NCBI GenBank assembly: GCA_028824715.1
Contig: JAPPCV010000039.1
Coordinates: 1 to 51,399, forward strand
Length of the DNA stretch: 51,399 nt
Direction of reading: 5' to 3'
DNA from: Boseongicola sp.
GTDB taxonomy: Bacteria > Pseudomonadota > Alphaproteobacteria > Rhodobacterales > Rhodobacteraceae
Part shown: one piece after another, positions 3,534 to 38,265 of the stretch
Layout: the number at the start of each line of letters is the position of its first letter
How positions within the stretch are numbered: the stretch's first letter is position 1
Position numbers and translations under genes: made by a program
Notes under the pieces: generated by a model
The model's database searches: none
What the model was told of the DNA's origin: nothing
Seen by the model: the letters and a program-made list of their open reading frames with translations, nothing else

Positions 3534-4027
3534 ACATTCACCAGCGGATAACCGGCGATCTCGTCGCCGCAGGGATCGGGTTCGTGACGACCGTGCCCTG
3601 CAAGCAGCTCGCTGGCGTGATCGAGGAAGTCGACAGGCATCCCGAGATTCTCCACGTTCCTTCCAACAAGGAAGACGAAGGCATGGGCCTTTGCGCCGGG
3701 GCGTGGATGGGCGGCCGACGTTCTGCCATAATCATGCAGAACACGGCGCTAGGCGTGACGATCAACACCCTTGCAACGCTGATCCAGTTCTACCGCATGC
3801 CGCTGCCGATGTTGATTTCCTATCGCGGAGAGCCTGGCGAACCTGTCGCCTGCCAGGTGGAAATGGCCGTGCATACCAAGGCGCTGCTCGCACAGCTCCA
3901 CATTCCGGCCTACCACTTCCATCGGCAGGAGGAGGTCGAGGAACTGCCGAAAGTCCTCGACTACACGTTCATGTGCTCCAAGCCGGTCGCAATCCTGACC
4001 GATGCGTCGTTCTGGGGAGGATACTGA
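3530..4027 (+). CDS. comD: Sulfopyruvate decarboxylase subunit alpha
   Basis: A 165-residue protein equivalent to the N-terminal (pyrimidine-binding) part of a thiamine-diphosphate decarboxylase; SNKEDEGMGLCAGAWMGG carries the expected catalytic-type glutamate, and TALGVTINTL follows. The short two-gene arrangement with the next gene is characteristic of ComDE, which converts sulfopyruvate to sulfoacetaldehyde and CO2, known from coenzyme M synthesis and from bacterial sulfolactate degradation. The GTG start overlaps the preceding stop. Phosphonopyruvate decarboxylase is the closest alternative, but that is normally one chain, and no phosphonate genes are nearby. Confidence 0.88.
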   Translation: MNIHQRITGDLVAAGIGFVTTVPCKQLAGVIEEVDRHPEILHVPSNKEDEGMGLCAGAWMGGRRSAIIMQNTALGVTINTLATLIQFYRMPLPMLISYRGEPGEPVACQVEMAVHTKALLAQLHIPAYHFHRQEEVEELPKVLDYTFMCSKPVAILTDASFWGGY

Positions 4028-4028
4028 G

Positions 4029-4586
4029 TTGATACGGTCCGAAATCCTTCAGGAAATCGCGCCTGTCCTGCGCGACCAGCTTGTCATCTGCAACATCGGC
4101 ATTCCAAGCCAGGAACTCCACGCCATTGATGACCAGCCGACGAACTTCTACATGCTCGGCACGATGGGGCTGGCGTCGTCCATCGGGTTGGGCCTTGCCC
4201 TGGTGCAGCCGAAACCCGTGATCGTGATCGACGGCGACGGCTCGATCCTCACCAATCTCGGAACGTTGCCCACGATAGCGAACAATCCGGCACCCAATTA
4301 CATTCTCCTCGTGATCGACAACGGCTCTTACGGCTCGACCGGCGACCAGCCGACCTATGCCGGCCGGAAGACGTCGCTCGCCGGCATGGCAAGGGCGGCG
4401 GGCTGCGAGCGCGTTGTCGAGTGTCGCGCCGAAGAGACCGGCGACGTGCTCAGCAGAGCACTGGAGGCCGGCGAGGCAACGGTCATCATATGCAAGTGCG
4501 AGAGCGGCAACGCGAAGATGCCGGTCATCAACCTGGATCCGGTCACCATTCGCGACCGTTTCATGCGGGCGGCGGCAGCTGATTGA
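4029..4586 (+). CDS. comE: Sulfopyruvate decarboxylase subunit beta
   Basis: The thiamine-diphosphate-binding half of the decarboxylase, about 185 residues, with the GDGS...N cofactor motif (VIDGDGSILTNLGT, then LLVIDNGSYGSTGDQ). I place the start at a TTG one base after the ComD stop, because GGGGAGGA at 4014-4021 sits seven bases ahead of it; an upstream ATG at 4002 in the same frame lies inside comD and has no such site. It would pair with ComD as a heteromeric enzyme. It ends 26 bp from the 3' end of the converging TRAP operon, with no clear terminator between. Confidence 0.88.
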   Translation: MIRSEILQEIAPVLRDQLVICNIGIPSQELHAIDDQPTNFYMLGTMGLASSIGLGLALVQPKPVIVIDGDGSILTNLGTLPTIANNPAPNYILLVIDNGSYGSTGDQPTYAGRKTSLAGMARAAGCERVVECRAEETGDVLSRALEAGEATVIICKCESGNAKMPVINLDPVTIRDRFMRAAAAD

Positions 4587-4612
4587 TCCTGCCTTCCACG
4601 CCCCCGCGCGCC

Positions 4613-5944
4613 TCAGTTGCCGTAGATGTACCCGGGAAGCCAGGTCGCGATTGCCGGGAAGAGGAACACGATTGCCAGGCCCAAGAGCTGGATCACCATG
4701 AACTGCATCATGCCGAGATAGATGTCCTTCAGGTCCCAGCTCGGCACGACGCCCTTCAGGAAATATGCCGATAACGCCACCGGTGGCGACAGCCATGCCG
4801 TCTGAAGGCAAACCGCCACGAGAATGGCGAACCAGACCTTGTCCACCTGCATCTCGATCAACAAGGGATAGAGGATCGGCAGGATGATTAGCACGATGGG
4901 CACCCATTCCAGGGGCCATCCGAGCAGGAAGATCAGGGCAAGGATCAGGATGACCACCATTGCCGCCGAGAGCTCCCACGAGAGCAGCAATTCCGTGATC
5001 ATGGTCGGCGTGCCAAGTCGCGAGAAGACTGCGCCGAAGAAATTCGAGGCCGCAACCAGAAAGAGGATCAAAACGGAGATTTCCAGCGTTTTCTTCAATG
5101 CGTCGTAGGTGCTCGACCAGGAGAACCTGCGATAGAGCAGCGTGAGCAAGATCGATCCGAACGCCCCCATTCCGGCACCTTCCGTGGGAGTCGCCCACCC
5201 CGTAAGGATCGAGCCGAGCGCAAAGGCGATCAGGATGGTCGGCGGCACGAGACCAAGGAAGAACTCCCGCCAGACATGCGACCGGTCACCGGGGATCAGT
5301 TCCTCCGGCAAGGGCGGGCCCAGTGACGGGTTCAGCCAGCACCGGACCATCGCGTAAACGAGATAGAGCACCGCCATCATGATGCCGGGGAATATCGCTG
5401 CCGCGAAGAGATCGGTCACCGGAATCTCGAGAACCGGTCCCATGACAACGAGCATGATCGAAGGCGGGATGAGAATTCCGAGCGTGCCGCCTGCGGTGAT
5501 CGTGCCGGAGGCGAGACGGACGTCGTAGCCCGAACGGTTCATCGTCGTTGCCGCCATGATGCCGAGTATGGTGACACTGGCGCCGACGATTCCGGTGGCG
5601 GCGCCAAATATCACGCTGACGAACAGGACGGCGACGAAGAGCGATCCTTTCATGCGTGCCAGCATCAGCTGCACGGCCGCGAACAGTCGCTCCATCAGCC
5701 CGGCCTGCTCCATCATGAACCCCATGAACACGAACAGCGGCACTGCCGCGAGCGTCTGTTCCATCATCGAGCCGTAGACCTGAAGCGTCATCAGGAAGAC
5801 AGTGAGCTTGATGCCGATGCCCCAGGCCCCGAAGACGAGCCCGAGGAAGATGAGCGTGAACGATATCGGGAACCCCACGAAAATCGCGAACAGCATCGCC
5901 CCGATCATCAGGAGCCCGATTACCTCGTTGGCAATCTCGAACAT
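4613..5944 (-). CDS. dctM: TRAP transporter large permease (DctM)
   Basis: A very hydrophobic protein of about 443 residues with roughly 12 membrane segments, typical of the DctM/SiaM large permease. Family-like stretches include GFPISFTLIFLG near the N terminus, GIVGASVTILGIMAA, and SGTITAGGTLGILIPPSIM. I start it at the ATG at 5944, whose codon overlaps the DctQ stop (TGATG); the open frame runs further upstream only as shadow inside dctQ. It is the last gene of the minus-strand operon GMC-TerC-DctP-DctQ-DctM and supplies sodium-driven uptake of an organic anion, by context probably a sulfonate. Confidence 0.93.
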   Translation of the reverse strand: MFEIANEVIGLLMIGAMLFAIFVGFPISFTLIFLGLVFGAWGIGIKLTVFLMTLQVYGSMMEQTLAAVPLFVFMGFMMEQAGLMERLFAAVQLMLARMKGSLFVAVLFVSVIFGAATGIVGASVTILGIMAATTMNRSGYDVRLASGTITAGGTLGILIPPSIMLVVMGPVLEIPVTDLFAAAIFPGIMMAVLYLVYAMVRCWLNPSLGPPLPEELIPGDRSHVWREFFLGLVPPTILIAFALGSILTGWATPTEGAGMGAFGSILLTLLYRRFSWSSTYDALKKTLEISVLILFLVAASNFFGAVFSRLGTPTMITELLLSWELSAAMVVILILALIFLLGWPLEWVPIVLIILPILYPLLIEMQVDKVWFAILVAVCLQTAWLSPPVALSAYFLKGVVPSWDLKDIYLGMMQFMVIQLLGLAIVFLFPAIATWLPGYIYGN

Positions 5945-6555
5945 CAGCGTGGCCACCGTCCGCGCGTCGCCGCATACCACGACTTCAGGATCTCGGAGAC
6001 GCCCTGGAGCACGAGGAAGAGGACCCCGGCGGCGAGGGCGATCTTCACGGGCCAGACAACCGGCGCCCAAGTGCTGTCCCCGGCGCGCTCGTTCTGCAGG
6101 AAGCTCTTTTCGGCGAAACCGTATCCCGCCCACAGAAGGAAGATCATCCCCGGCATGAAAAGCGTGACGTAGAGCAGGAGATCGACCCGACCCTGCGTCT
6201 TCACCGAGAAACCGCGGTAGATGAAGTCCGCACGAATATGAAGGCCGCGCATGAGGGCATAGGCGGCGCCAAGCATGAACGACGTGCCGTAAAGCATGCG
6301 CGAGATGTCAAATGCCCAGAGCGTGGGCGCGAGGAAGAACTTGCGGGCGATGACCTCGTAGACCATCGCGACGATGATCGGCGCAACCATCAGGCAGACT
6401 ATCCGGCCCTGCCACTCGGAAATCCAGTCCAGCGCCCAGACGAGCCACCTGGCAAGAGGATGCATGTCGTCCGGAAGGGGTGTGTTCGGCCCTCCGCGAG
6501 CCTCTGCCAGCAACTCGTCGCCAGCCTCAAGGTCAATGTCGTCGAGGTCGTTCAC
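5944..6555 (-). CDS. dctQ: TRAP transporter small permease (DctQ)
   Basis: A membrane protein of about 203 residues with four predicted helices (around IVCLMVAPIIVAMVYEVI, MLYGTSFMLGAAYALM, LLYVTLFMPGMIFLLWAGY and IALAAGVLFLVLQG), as expected for DctQ, which holds DctM to the complex. I choose the GTG at 6555 because GGGAGG lies seven bases upstream; a TTG at 6588 has no comparable site. A charged N-terminal extension of about 45 residues precedes the first helix. The stop overlaps the DctM start. Confidence 0.88.
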   Translation of the reverse strand: MNDLDDIDLEAGDELLAEARGGPNTPLPDDMHPLARWLVWALDWISEWQGRIVCLMVAPIIVAMVYEVIARKFFLAPTLWAFDISRMLYGTSFMLGAAYALMRGLHIRADFIYRGFSVKTQGRVDLLLYVTLFMPGMIFLLWAGYGFAEKSFLQNERAGDSTWAPVVWPVKIALAAGVLFLVLQGVSEILKSWYAATRGRWPR

Positions 6556-35641: not shown

Positions 35642-35649
35642 CAATGAAG
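35642..35649. repeat. Left target-site duplication (imperfect)
   Basis: CAATGAAG directly abuts the left inverted repeat and matches CAATGGAG at the right end at 7 of 8 positions. Eight-base duplications are expected for the IS1595 family. The single mismatch implies an old insertion. Confidence 0.65.
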
Positions 35650-35676
35650 GGGACTCATATACGAGAATCCCAATTT
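35650..35676. repeat. Left terminal inverted repeat
   Basis: Begins GGGACTCAT and contains TACGAGAATCCCAATTT (35660-35676), identical to the inner part of the right end. A further AGAATCCCA occurs at about 35709, possibly a subterminal transposase-binding site. Confidence 0.85.
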
Positions 35677-35736
35677 CCTCGTGACGCCGCCGCAGACTCC
35701 GTTACAGTAGAATCCCAAAAAAGACAGAGATTCGGA

Positions 35737-36723
35737 ATGGCACTGCAGGCACCGGGAAGATCGCACCGCAAGGGACTCAGCAACAGGCAGCTGATGAAGA
35801 TGTTTCCGACAGAGGACACCGCTCGCGAGTGGCTGGAGTCCGAAATATGGCCTGATGGCCCTTATTGTCCGCACTGCGGCAGCTTCAACGTGCAGTCCGG
35901 CATCAAGCATAGCAGCATGACCCACCGTTGCCGGGACTGTCCCAATCGACCGCAGTTCAGCGTCAAGTCCGGCACGGTGATGAAGGGAACCAAGCTGGAA
36001 TGCCGGGATTGGGCTATCGCCGTCCATTTGCTGACGACGAACCTGAAAGGCGTATCCAGCATGAAATTGCACCGGGAACTGGAAATCACGCAGAAGTCTG
36101 CGTGGCACCTGATGCACCGCCTGCGCAAGACCTTCGAGACTACCGGAACGATTTTCGGCGGGCCGGTTGAAGCCGATGAGACTTACATCGGCGGTCTTGA
36201 GAAGAACAAGCACAAGGCAAAGAAGCTGAACGCCGGACGGGGTGGCGCGGGCAAGGCGATCGTTGCCGGCGTGAAGGATCGGGAGACCAATCAGGTCGTC
36301 GCCAAGGTGGTCCCGGATACGGCCGCCAGGACGCTTCAGGGCTTCGTGGAAGGCCACGCAGAGGAAACCGCGCAGGTGGTCGGTCTGGTGGTCTACACCG
36401 ATACGGGCGGCCGCTACGTGGGCATGGACAGGGCGCACGAGAGCGTGAATCACAGTGTAGGGGAGTATTTGCGGGACATCGCACACACGAACGGCATTGA
36501 ATCCTTCTGGGCGACGATGGAACGCGCCCATAGAGGCGTATATCTCAAGTTCAGCAAGAAGCACTTGCAACGGTATGTCGATGAGTTCTCCGGACGGCAA
36601 AACGCTCGGAGCGCGGACACGCTGGTGCAGATGCGCGGCATTGTCTCCGGGATGGCCGGCAAGGAACTGCGCTACGAGGACCTCACGGCAGACTGCGGCC
36701 TGGCTTCGGGAGCGTGGTCATGA
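35737..36723 (+). CDS. IS1595-family transposase
   Basis: A 328-residue transposase. The N terminus carries a zinc-ribbon (YCPHCGS ... HRCRDCPNR). The catalytic core has the IS1595/ISXO2-like signature: EADETYIGGLEKNKH (first Asp), VVYTDTGGRYVGM (second Asp) and NGIESFWATMERAHRGVYLK (third acidic position), followed by HLQRYVDEFSGRQNAR. The ATG at 35737 gives the usual N terminus. No stop or frameshift is visible, so it may still be active. The stop overlaps the methyltransferase start (ATGA). Confidence 0.95.
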   Translation: MALQAPGRSHRKGLSNRQLMKMFPTEDTAREWLESEIWPDGPYCPHCGSFNVQSGIKHSSMTHRCRDCPNRPQFSVKSGTVMKGTKLECRDWAIAVHLLTTNLKGVSSMKLHRELEITQKSAWHLMHRLRKTFETTGTIFGGPVEADETYIGGLEKNKHKAKKLNAGRGGAGKAIVAGVKDRETNQVVAKVVPDTAARTLQGFVEGHAEETAQVVGLVVYTDTGGRYVGMDRAHESVNHSVGEYLRDIAHTNGIESFWATMERAHRGVYLKFSKKHLQRYVDEFSGRQNARSADTLVQMRGIVSGMAGKELRYEDLTADCGLASGAWS

Positions 36724-37433
36724 GCGAGACGCTGCAAGCCATGCCATTCGACGCCATTGGAGACATTGCGCCCAGCCTGGCAGTGAAGGACGATCCGGTT
36801 TACGCCCCAATCAGCAGCGTATGGGAAGGGAGCGACGGCGAACTCTTGGAAAGGATGCTTGGATTCTATCCGTCCATTCCGCCTGAGCCCATACTGGATT
36901 CGACGTTCAACCGCGGCAGATTCTGGAAGGGTTCCGATCGCCGCGTCGTTTCCATGGACATCAATCCGAAATTCAACCCCATGATCCTTGGAGACAACCG
37001 GAAGATGGAAGGCGTTCCGGACTCCTCCTTTGGCGTGGTCGTTTACGACCCGCCGCACGTCGGCCCGCAAGGACGCGACAAAAGCGGCAAGAAGTTCGAC
37101 GAGGATTTCGGGGCGACAGTTGTTTGCGGCAAGGAGCAGGGATGGAAACTGTCTTACCTGTATCCGCCGTCTCTGCAACAGGCAAAGCGCGTCCTGAAAC
37201 CCTAGGGTCTCTTGCTGGCGAAGATAACTGACATGGTGAACTGCCACCGTTCGCAATGGGCGCATTGCGACTTCATGGCAATGGCCGCCGAAGCCGGTTT
37301 CACGGTCTGCGACCTGATCGTCAAGGTGAGGACCGGGCCTATGGTATCCAATAAGTGGAAAGTTGCGCATCACGCCAGAAAGCGGCATTGCTTCTGGATC
37401 ATCTGCCGGAACGGCACCAGTTGTGAGCGATAG
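36720..37433 (+). pseudogene. DNA methyltransferase interrupted by one in-frame amber codon
   Basis: A SAM-dependent methyltransferase of 237 codons. The cofactor region is PILDSTFNRGRFWKG with VVSMDINP, and the catalytic motif is VVYDPPHVG, of the DPP(Y/H) amino-methyltransferase type. A TAG at 37203-37205 falls between AKRVLKP and GLLLAKITDMVN; the frame before and after is the same and both halves match one continuous family, so this is a single nonsense mutation. It starts inside the transposase stop (ATGA) and ends three bases before the endonuclease GTG. Readthrough of TAG is the alternative to inactivation. It is the presumed protective partner of the endonuclease. Confidence 0.82.
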
Positions 37434-37436
37434 TCC

Positions 37437-38023
37437 GTGCGCTCATACGACCCACTCAGCGTTGACGAACTGGGGAAGAATGCAGCCAGGGCCCTGCGGG
37501 AGCATCCGTCCGTGAGCTTGCCGCCAGACCCTTTCGAAGGGGCTGGCGTCTACACTCTCCATTATGCCGGAGCGTTTCGGCCATATGCCGGCATGGATGA
37601 CGCGACTGAAGCGATTTATGTCGGGAAGGCAAGCCCGCCTGGAGGACGTCACGGACGGGATGCCGCGGCAAGTCCAGGGAAGGCGCTTCACGCCCGTCTC
37701 TCCAGGCACGCGCGTTCGATAGATGCCGTCCAGAATCTCAATCTTGCGGACTTTCGGTGCCGATGGCTTGTTCTTGACCCCGTCTGGACGGGATTGACCG
37801 AACAGGTCCTGACCTCAGAATGCCGACCGTCGTGGTCGGAGGGTTCGGCATCAACGCGCCAGGTCGCGGGCGCGGCAGACAGACGCGGTCGCAATGGGAT
37901 ACAGTTCATCCCCGACGCCCGGAAGTGGCCGACCTCCCGGACCGTGAAGAAACCGTTGACGAAATCCTGGATTCAATTGCGGCACATCGACTTGCCAATA
38001 CGCAAATGGGAGGAACCCAATGA
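37437..38023 (+). pseudogene. Eco29kI-like GIY-YIG restriction endonuclease, frameshifted
   Basis: The first 133 codons match the Eco29kI family: YDPLSVDELGKNAARALRE, GAGVYTLHYAGAFRPYA, EAIYVGKASPPGGR (the GIY-YIG core), LHARLSRHARSI and LADFRCRWLVLDPVWTGLTE. After RPSW (ending 37835) the family continues in another frame as VVVGGFGINAPGRGRGRQ, SQWDTVHPRRPEVADLPDR and ends at the TGA at 38021-38023. A 10-bp deletion between two 8-bp CGTCGTGG repeats would explain the shift exactly. The repaired protein would be about 198 residues, close to Eco29kI (about 214). In the unrepaired frame a fused tail runs to 38093. Start is GTG. Confidence 0.85.
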
Positions 38024-38199
38024 CGATGCCGGAAGACCGCCCGACGGTGCGGGTAAAGCCGCACAGCTATCAGCCGAGCAAGGCAGAGCTTGAGGAGCCC
38101 TTCGTGATCCGCAAGCCGGACGGGTCGGTTCCGACGCCCGCCGAACTTGTCCGGGCCGCGCTCCGGCCTGTGAATGTTGTCGAGGATCCCGCCGCCTGA
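38020..38199 (+). CDS. Small conserved protein of the transposon cargo (59 residues)
   Basis: Starts at the ATG overlapping the endonuclease stop (ATGA). It contains TVRVKPHSYQPSKAELEEPF and PTPAELVRAALRPV, a pattern I have seen as small uncharacterised proteins in alphaproteobacteria. Function is unknown. It could be a controller or accessory protein of the restriction-modification unit, but it lacks an obvious helix-turn-helix. It is the last gene before the right inverted repeat. Confidence 0.7.
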   Translation: MTMPEDRPTVRVKPHSYQPSKAELEEPFVIRKPDGSVPTPAELVRAALRPVNVVEDPAA

Positions 38200-38230
38200 A
38201 AGGTGAACGCCCCGCAGTCAGGGGACCGGC

Positions 38231-38257
38231 AAATTGGGATTCTCGTAAATGAACCTC
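38231..38257. repeat. Right terminal inverted repeat
   Basis: Reads outward (minus strand) GAGGTTCAT then TTACGAGAATCCCAATTT; 23 of 27 positions match the left end, with 17 identical in a row. Confidence 0.85.
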
Positions 38258-38265
38258 CAATGGAG
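38258..38265. repeat. Right target-site duplication (imperfect)
   Basis: CAATGGAG, 7 of 8 matching CAATGAAG at 35642-35649. Confidence 0.65.

What the first reader, a model, noticed from the sequence alone, without database searches (positions are those of the whole stretch)
35650..38257. A transposon of the IS1595 family that carries a type II restriction-modification cassette
Direct observation: 27-bp inverted ends (23/27), an imperfect 8-bp target duplication (CAATGAAG / CAATGGAG), a full IS1595-type transposase, and in the same direction a DPPH-type DNA methyltransferase, an Eco29kI-like GIY-YIG endonuclease and a 59-residue protein. Restriction-modification systems are known to be mobile, but being an integral cargo of a simple two-ended IS1595 element, co-transcribed with the transposase, is unusual. 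Such a unit could address itself: loss of the element would expose the host to the persisting endonuclease.
Basis: partly seen in the sequence, partly recalled or inferred. Interest (0 to 1): 0.88.

Follow-up and report, generated by a model that had tools for sequence, protein, structure and literature searches.

The report
Jumping element with exchangeable restriction-modification slot
This is a decayed member of a group of small bacterial jumping elements that often carry a DNA-cutting-and-protecting (restriction-modification) system as cargo, and whose close relatives hold quite different such systems in the same slot.

Summary
The element is real: end repeats 23/27, an 8-bp duplication differing at one base, an open IS1595-type transposase, a DPPH methyltransferase, an Eco29kI-type endonuclease and a 59-residue protein. 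In 5 of 7 other genomes of the genus exactly this segment is missing, so it moved as a unit.

It is not alone. Of 25 non-redundant elements of its transposase clade with paired ends and matching duplications, 17 carry a DNA methyltransferase and 10 of these a partner (endonuclease or specificity subunit; one by eye only). Cargo includes Eco29kI, NotI, XcyI, C5 and specificity-subunit types; SacI, BglII and type IIG types occur at less well bounded or more distant loci. None of 13 distant IS1595 elements has one. A second R-M element of this genome has clean empty sites in 7 of 7 congeners; another exists as four copies in a one-contig genome.

Sister elements share ends, transposase and terminal small gene but hold unrelated R-M pairs: cassette exchange. 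Carrier IS1595 elements are known; my searches showed no report of this R-M platform. Addiction is plausible and untested.

The parts
35642..35649 (.). left target duplication CAATGAAG
   Evidence: 7/8 match to the right copy; junction agrees with empty sites L174-L178
35650..35676 (+). left terminal inverted repeat
   Evidence: 23/27 to the right end; 0 of 300 shuffles reach the score
35737..36723 (+). IS1595-family transposase, open, 328 aa
   Evidence: PF12762 6.5e-32, PF12760 2.4e-9
36720..37433 (+). DPPH methyltransferase gene, broken by an in-frame TAG at 37203-37205; start overlaps the transposase stop (ATGA)
   Evidence: 19 of 19 aligned relatives read on; 73-81% identical to L022, L018, L009 proteins
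37437..38023 (+). Eco29kI-type GIY-YIG endonuclease gene, frameshifted near 37837
   Evidence: PF09517 5.2e-26 for the N-terminal part; C-terminal part in another frame 37820-38023
38020..38199 (+). small terminal protein, 59 aa; start overlaps the endonuclease stop
   Evidence: 91.5% identical in L157; profile matches in elements with unrelated cargo
38231..38257 (-). right terminal inverted repeat
38258..38265 (.). right target duplication CAATGGAG

Best explanation
The window holds an old, decaying copy of a carrier IS1595 transposon whose cargo slot, between the transposase gene and a small terminal gene, held a type II R-M pair. Shown by sequence comparison: (1) the 2.6-kb unit went in between two octamers and nothing else moved; (2) the same transposase clade carries many unrelated R-M systems inside its ends; (3) the R-M pair behaves as an exchangeable cassette, since sister elements keep ends, transposase and terminal gene but differ completely in between; (4) one complete R-M member is present as four copies with one identical core sequence in a single genome. 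Inferred: transposase, methyltransferase, endonuclease and small protein are made from one message, methylase before nuclease; homologous recombination in the two conserved flanks swaps cassettes; the R-M pair helps the element persist, by killing cells that lose it, by defending the host, or both. The window copy can no longer do this, because both cargo genes are broken.
For: Empty sites for the window element in 5 of 7 congeners and for the C94 element in 7 of 7, with one CAGTCAAC. 17 of 25 bounded non-redundant elements with a methyltransferase; 16 of 29 full-length genus copies, in 7 of 8 genomes. Distant IS1595 elements 0 of 13, 0 of 26 cargo ORFs with an MTase or restriction Pfam. Cassette swap: window vs L157, C94 vs L161 vs L160, L088/L154 vs L197. 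Endonuclease and methyltransferase family matches. Four identical copies in G597.
Against: Both cargo genes of the window copy are broken. 8 of the 25 bounded elements, and 34 of 62 clade members overall, show no methyltransferase (some are cut by contig ends). Seven of the 17 have no separate endonuclease recognised, some of them being fusions to HNH or Mrr domains. The methyltransferase seeds came from the same loci, though most were checked with Pfam or PADLOC. In the window's empty sites the octamer region has diverged, so it is only roughly recognisable. Two of the four G597 copies lack matching duplications. No activity was measured.
Confidence: 0.85

Rival explanations
1. The R-M cargo is an addiction module that keeps the transposon: loss of the element leaves nuclease without fresh methylase and kills the cell. 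(A sharper form of the best explanation.)
For: [quoted passage not shown] Methylase precedes nuclease with overlapping or adjacent starts in several elements.
Against: The window copy is broken in both genes. For IS1595-type mobile elements a replicative, copy-out excision has been suggested (PMC5704250, passages), so donors would rarely be lost.
Confidence: 0.35
2. The R-M cargo is kept because it defends the host against phages; the transposon merely benefits.
For: Many different specificity families are carried, as expected if new specificities are favoured.
Against: No phage data; decay of the window copy shows the benefit is not constant.
Confidence: 0.35
3. An ordinary IS landed beside a resident R-M system, so the association is neighbourhood and not cargo.
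For: The same methyltransferase-endonuclease pair lies without a transposase match in most of 20 related loci.
Against: Empty sites show transposase and R-M arrived together; R-M lies inside paired ends with matching duplications in many elements.
Confidence: 0.03
4. The breaks in the window cargo are assembly errors and the copy is intact.
For: Draft assembly; reads not available.
Against: Two separate breaks in one element, with a diverged end repeat and duplication, fit old age.
Confidence: 0.1

Closest known systems
Transporter insertion sequences (tIS) of the IS1595 family (Siguier et al. 2009, seen only as cited in PMC11891212 and PMC3129680), tISCpe8, MTnSag1
   Same: IS1595-type transposase, two ends, target duplication, passenger genes not needed for transposition (passages)
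   Different: Passengers named there are a transcription regulator (ISNha5) and lincomycin resistance; here complete type II R-M systems of many unrelated types, exchangeable between sister elements
R-M units with inverted ends and short target duplications, and IS-flanked R-M (Furuta et al. 2010 as cited in PMC3874152; PMC3031569)
   Same: R-M as the moving unit (passages)
   Different: Those are described as moving unlinked to a mobile element or between two IS copies; here one transposase gene sits inside the same ends
Eco29kI restriction system
   Same: Endonuclease family: intact relative L022 matches Eco29kIR in the PDB at 5.1e-37
   Different: The partner here is a small DPPH-motif methyltransferase; that the Eco29kI partner is a C5 methyltransferase is recalled, not tested
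Defence cargo of Tn7-like transposons (PMC8649781, abstract start in a search listing only)
   Same: A transposon carrying defence genes
   Different: Far larger elements with other transposition genes; here 2.4-5.3 kb with one transposase

Membership tests
IS1595 family | transposase with IS1595 DDE and zinc-ribbon domains | tested here: met
   PF12762 6.5e-32, PF12760 2.4e-9
IS1595 family | terminal inverted repeats of about 20-27 bp | tested here: met
   23/27; 0 of 300 shuffles
IS1595 family | 8-bp target duplication | tested here: met
   7/8 at the window, 8/8 at C94, with single copy in empty sites
Transporter IS (tIS) | passenger genes unrelated to transposition inside one pair of ends | tested here: met
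Type II R-M system | methyltransferase and endonuclease genes side by side | tested here: met
   20 of 20 related loci; window copy has both genes but broken
Type II R-M system | open reading frames for both enzymes in the window copy | tested here: not met
   TAG at 37203-37205 and frameshift near 37837
Type II R-M system | matching methylation and cleavage specificity | not testable with these tools
   needs an experiment
DNA methyltransferase (DPPH protein) | SAM-dependent methyltransferase fold acting on DNA | tested here: inconclusive
   weak family matches; model pTM 0.68 matches SAM methyltransferases; substrate not shown
Addiction module | cells that lose the unit die | not testable with these tools
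   needs an experiment; window copy broken

The most novel reading that the evidence does not exclude
A lineage of IS1595 transposons has become a dedicated restriction-modification vehicle: its transposase gene and a new family of small terminal proteins act as constant arms around one slot in which whole R-M systems are exchanged, and the R-M pair serves the transposon itself (retention, exclusion of rival elements), with the small protein controlling transposition or R-M expression.
Probability: 0.35. Interest if true: 0.88.

Novelty: new variant of a known kind. Interest (0 to 1): 0.74.

Why it matters
How type II R-M systems travel between bacteria is an old question. Here are short transposons that carry their own transposase and repeatedly hold R-M systems of unrelated families, with junctions precise enough to show cassette exchange. 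That makes R-M mobility, R-M addiction and the gain of new specificities testable with elements of 2.4-5.3 kb. The clade is also a place to look for new restriction enzymes, since some cargo pairs have weak or no family matches, and for the role of a small protein for which I found no family.

Tried and rejected
Chance ends: rejected (0 of 300 shuffles). IS beside a resident R-M: rejected for the window and C94 by empty sites. I first took the C98 copy for degenerate; its methyltransferase and endonuclease frames are continuous and only the transposase is a remnant, though the methyltransferase departs from otherwise conserved positions. No transposase match at E<=1e-2 and no convincing flanking repeats were found beside the Chloroflexota-titled loci. 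Plasmids: of 313 records with a transposase match, all under 60% identical, three were opened and none has R-M annotated beside the transposase. The phylum sample (398 genomes) held the clade at E<=1e-70 in 5 genomes, all in the window's class. A PDB sequence search with the C94 endonuclease and with the DPPH methyltransferase gave nothing useful. The small protein's model (mean pLDDT 76, pTM 0.42) had no PDB match at E<=0.001. NCBIfam added little. Some end pairs found by the script are chance or other repeats (for example L219, L224), which is why only pairs with matching duplications were counted.

Full report
Observation. The element spans 35650-38257. Its ends match at 23 of 27 positions and are flanked by CAATGAAG and CAATGGAG; 0 of 300 shuffles reach the inverted-repeat score. 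The transposase is open and has both IS1595 domains; the endonuclease gene matches Eco29kI. The methyltransferase gene carries TAG at 37203-37205, where 19 of 19 aligned relatives continue; the endonuclease leaves its frame near 37837. Intact copies of both genes exist elsewhere, for example in L022, a Gammaproteobacteria record, inside 26-bp ends together with an open transposase.

Movement as a unit. Sixty-one genomes, 7 of them other members of the genus, were searched with the window locus. In 5 of the 7 (G298, G296, G295, G300, G201) the two flanks lie together with an octamer-sized stretch at the junction; this intergenic stretch has diverged, so the octamer is only roughly recognisable. 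G299 differs around the site, and G297 has another IS1595 element (L154) in the same gap. For a second element of the same genome (contig C94, L042) 7 of 7 congeners show the exact empty site with one CAGTCAAC. That element has an 8/8 duplication and carries MTase_II PDLC03306 (1.5e-112) and REase_II PDLC03525 (2.1e-57). A third element (C39, L008/L043) has 23/23 ends and a 7/8 duplication, a D12 methyltransferase (PF02086 1.2e-27) and, on the opposite strand, REase_II PDLC03566 (2e-48). The window genome has 8 IS1595 transposase places in all.

How general it is. I searched 295 genomes of the family, 8 of the genus, 385 of the class and 398 of the phylum with the window transposase. The tool scored only some candidates per genome in the larger searches, so these are lower bounds. 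I fetched all 29 genus places of 250 bits or more, every family place of 224 bits or more, 31 of the 34 class places outside the window genome (not G364 C93, G645 C49, G483 C162) and two places of the phylum search. An end pair was found by script in 57 of 94 loci. After joining transposases at least 95% identical and leaving out L018 and L022, which were found through their cargo, 62 remain at 295 bits or more: 28 with a methyltransferase, 12 of these with a recognised partner. With paired ends and a duplication of at least 7/8 there are 25: 17 with a methyltransferase, 9 of these with a partner; a tenth partner, XcyI in L221 (PF09571 6.8e-13), came. One of the ten partners (L226, GIY-YIG-like) rests on my reading of the sequence, since PADLOC gave no match, and one (L234) is a specificity subunit. 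The window was put among the 25 by hand, because the script's octamers missed its true ends. At 225-295 bits there are 14, of which 4 have a methyltransferase. Of the 29 full-length genus copies 16 have one, in 7 of 8 genomes.

Kinds of cargo in the clade: Eco29kI; NotI (PF12183 3.2e-38) with D12; SacI (PF09566 3.6e-29) with D12; BglII (PF09195 5.2e-28) with MT-A70; XcyI; REase_II PDLC03515 (1.3e-13), 03525, 03566, 03508 (3.4e-74, with C5 PF00145 4.5e-58) and 03442 (3.3e-84); HNH with N6_N4; a methyltransferase-Mrr fusion; methyltransferase-HNH fusions; an N6 methyltransferase with a specificity subunit; a type IIG-like protein; an EcoRI-type methyltransferase cut by a contig end. The SacI locus has no ends found and its transposase is broken; the BglII and type IIG transposases score 248-284 bits; so these are outside the strict 25. 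Elements without a methyltransferase carry other or unknown genes; Pfam scans of 31 of their ORFs (one element, L221, proved to be R-M) named among others an EamA transporter, a SocA-like antitoxin and outer-membrane proteins.

Control. Thirteen more distant IS1595 elements (34-39% transposase identity), 11 with an end pair, gave 0 methyltransferases by the same seed search. The seeds came from the clade, so I also scanned their 26 cargo ORFs with Pfam: 0 methyltransferase or restriction matches, but DUF3800 (3), PIN (2) and SocA (1). Cargo is thus common in this family, while R-M cargo goes with this clade. PF01555 methyltransferases are few in the window genome: 4 places in 5.2 Mb, 3 above the cut-off.

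Cassette exchange. The closest relative of the window element is L157: transposase 84% identical, small protein 91.5% identical, similar ends, yet its cargo is D12 plus NotI. DNA similarity covers the left 1077 bp and then only stretches of 194 and 20 bp at the right, with the breaks at gene junctions. C94, L161 and L160 form a second set, and L088, L154 and L197 a third; the transposase tree joins each set (branch support 87 or more). In the other direction, the DPPH/Eco29kI cassette sits on transposases 39-50% identical to the window's while the methyltransferases are 73-81% identical. For NotI the contrast is weaker: L157 and L225 are 50% identical in transposase and 59% in both cargo proteins. 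Transposase stop and methyltransferase start overlap as ATGA or GTGA in 8 of 12 junctions inspected.

Activity. In G597, a single-contig genome, four copies share one 2744-bp core sequence. Two have matching octamers (AATTTTAA, TTTTTTTA). Two do not; the left octamer of one equals the right octamer of the other, as recombination between copies could give. This suggests recent movement of a complete R-M element; movement itself was not observed.

The methyltransferase. The DPPH protein lies next to the endonuclease in 20 of 20 related loci (one is cut by its contig end), whose record titles name Chloroflexota and Dehalococcoidia, Gammaproteobacteria, Boseongicola, Rhodobacter, Cyanobacteria and Limisphaerales. 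Two of the 20 (L018, L022) have a nearly full transposase beside it and two (L017, L027) a fragment. Family matches are weak, but the predicted model (mean pLDDT 64.5, pTM 0.68) matches SAM-dependent methyltransferases of various substrates. That supports the fold, not DNA as substrate.

The small terminal protein. A profile from 11 examples finds it near the right end of elements with unrelated cargo. Scores fall off gradually; matches on the opposite strand and those above about 1e-6 should not be counted. Its function is unknown.

Literature. I saw passages, not whole papers, of PMC11891212, PMC7371123, PMC5704250, PMC3129680, PMC6563490, PMC3031569 and PMC3874152. Carrier IS1595 elements and R-M units with inverted ends are known. 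In eight full-text searches I saw no report of complete R-M systems as IS1595 cargo; I looked at listings and the passages named. Siguier 2009 was not looked up and is known to me only through citing passages; of four further look-ups, a DOI and a PMC id that I took for Furuta 2010, one for a 2014 IS review and one for Zheng 2016 were not held. Prior mention there is possible.

Limits. Most assemblies are draft and contig ends hide cargo in several loci. Family models name a likely function only. R-M activity, specificity and addiction are untested. That IS1595 transposases use a DDE/N active site, and that many of the record titles point to sponge symbionts, is recalled and not tested.

Noticed in passing
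L006 (G000 C98), L155 (G201 C102), L156 (G298 C81): A related DPPH methyltransferase-endonuclease pair lies in collinear DNA in three genomes of the genus (88.5% over 5.5 kb between C98 and L156); C98 and L155 keep only an N-terminal transposase remnant. It looks like an immobilised former cargo.
   Followed up: partly
L156 and L017: G298 is the genome of GenBank record VXSG01000108.1 (Boseongicola sp. SB0665_bin_10): 100% identity over 7001 bp, so the window's genus can be named through it.
   Followed up: yes
L154 (G297 C455), 3983-6528: A BglII-type R-M IS1595 element sits in the same intergenic gap, in another genome, as the window element: two different elements used the same gap.
   Followed up: partly
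L169 (G297 C208): A 3354-bp contig begins and ends exactly with 23/23 inverted ends, as an assembly collapse of a multi-copy element would; its cargo was not identified.
   Followed up: no
L037 (G000 C145), 4590-5156: An IS1595 transposase is followed by an ORF that looks nuclease-like by eye, with no methyltransferase; NCBIfam and PADLOC gave no match for its 148-aa core.
   Followed up: partly
L101, L105, L109, L111: More distant IS1595 elements carry toxin-antitoxin-like cargo: PIN-type proteins by sight or Pfam (two Pfam matches among 26 ORFs) and one SocA-like protein.
   Followed up: partly
L089-L095, L238, L239: A sister group with ends GGGGCCTATATACTTAACTAGCC carries a protein of about 310-350 aa, P63C-like by recollection, sometimes with a DUF3800-like protein, and no methyltransferase except L094, which is outside that group.
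   Followed up: no
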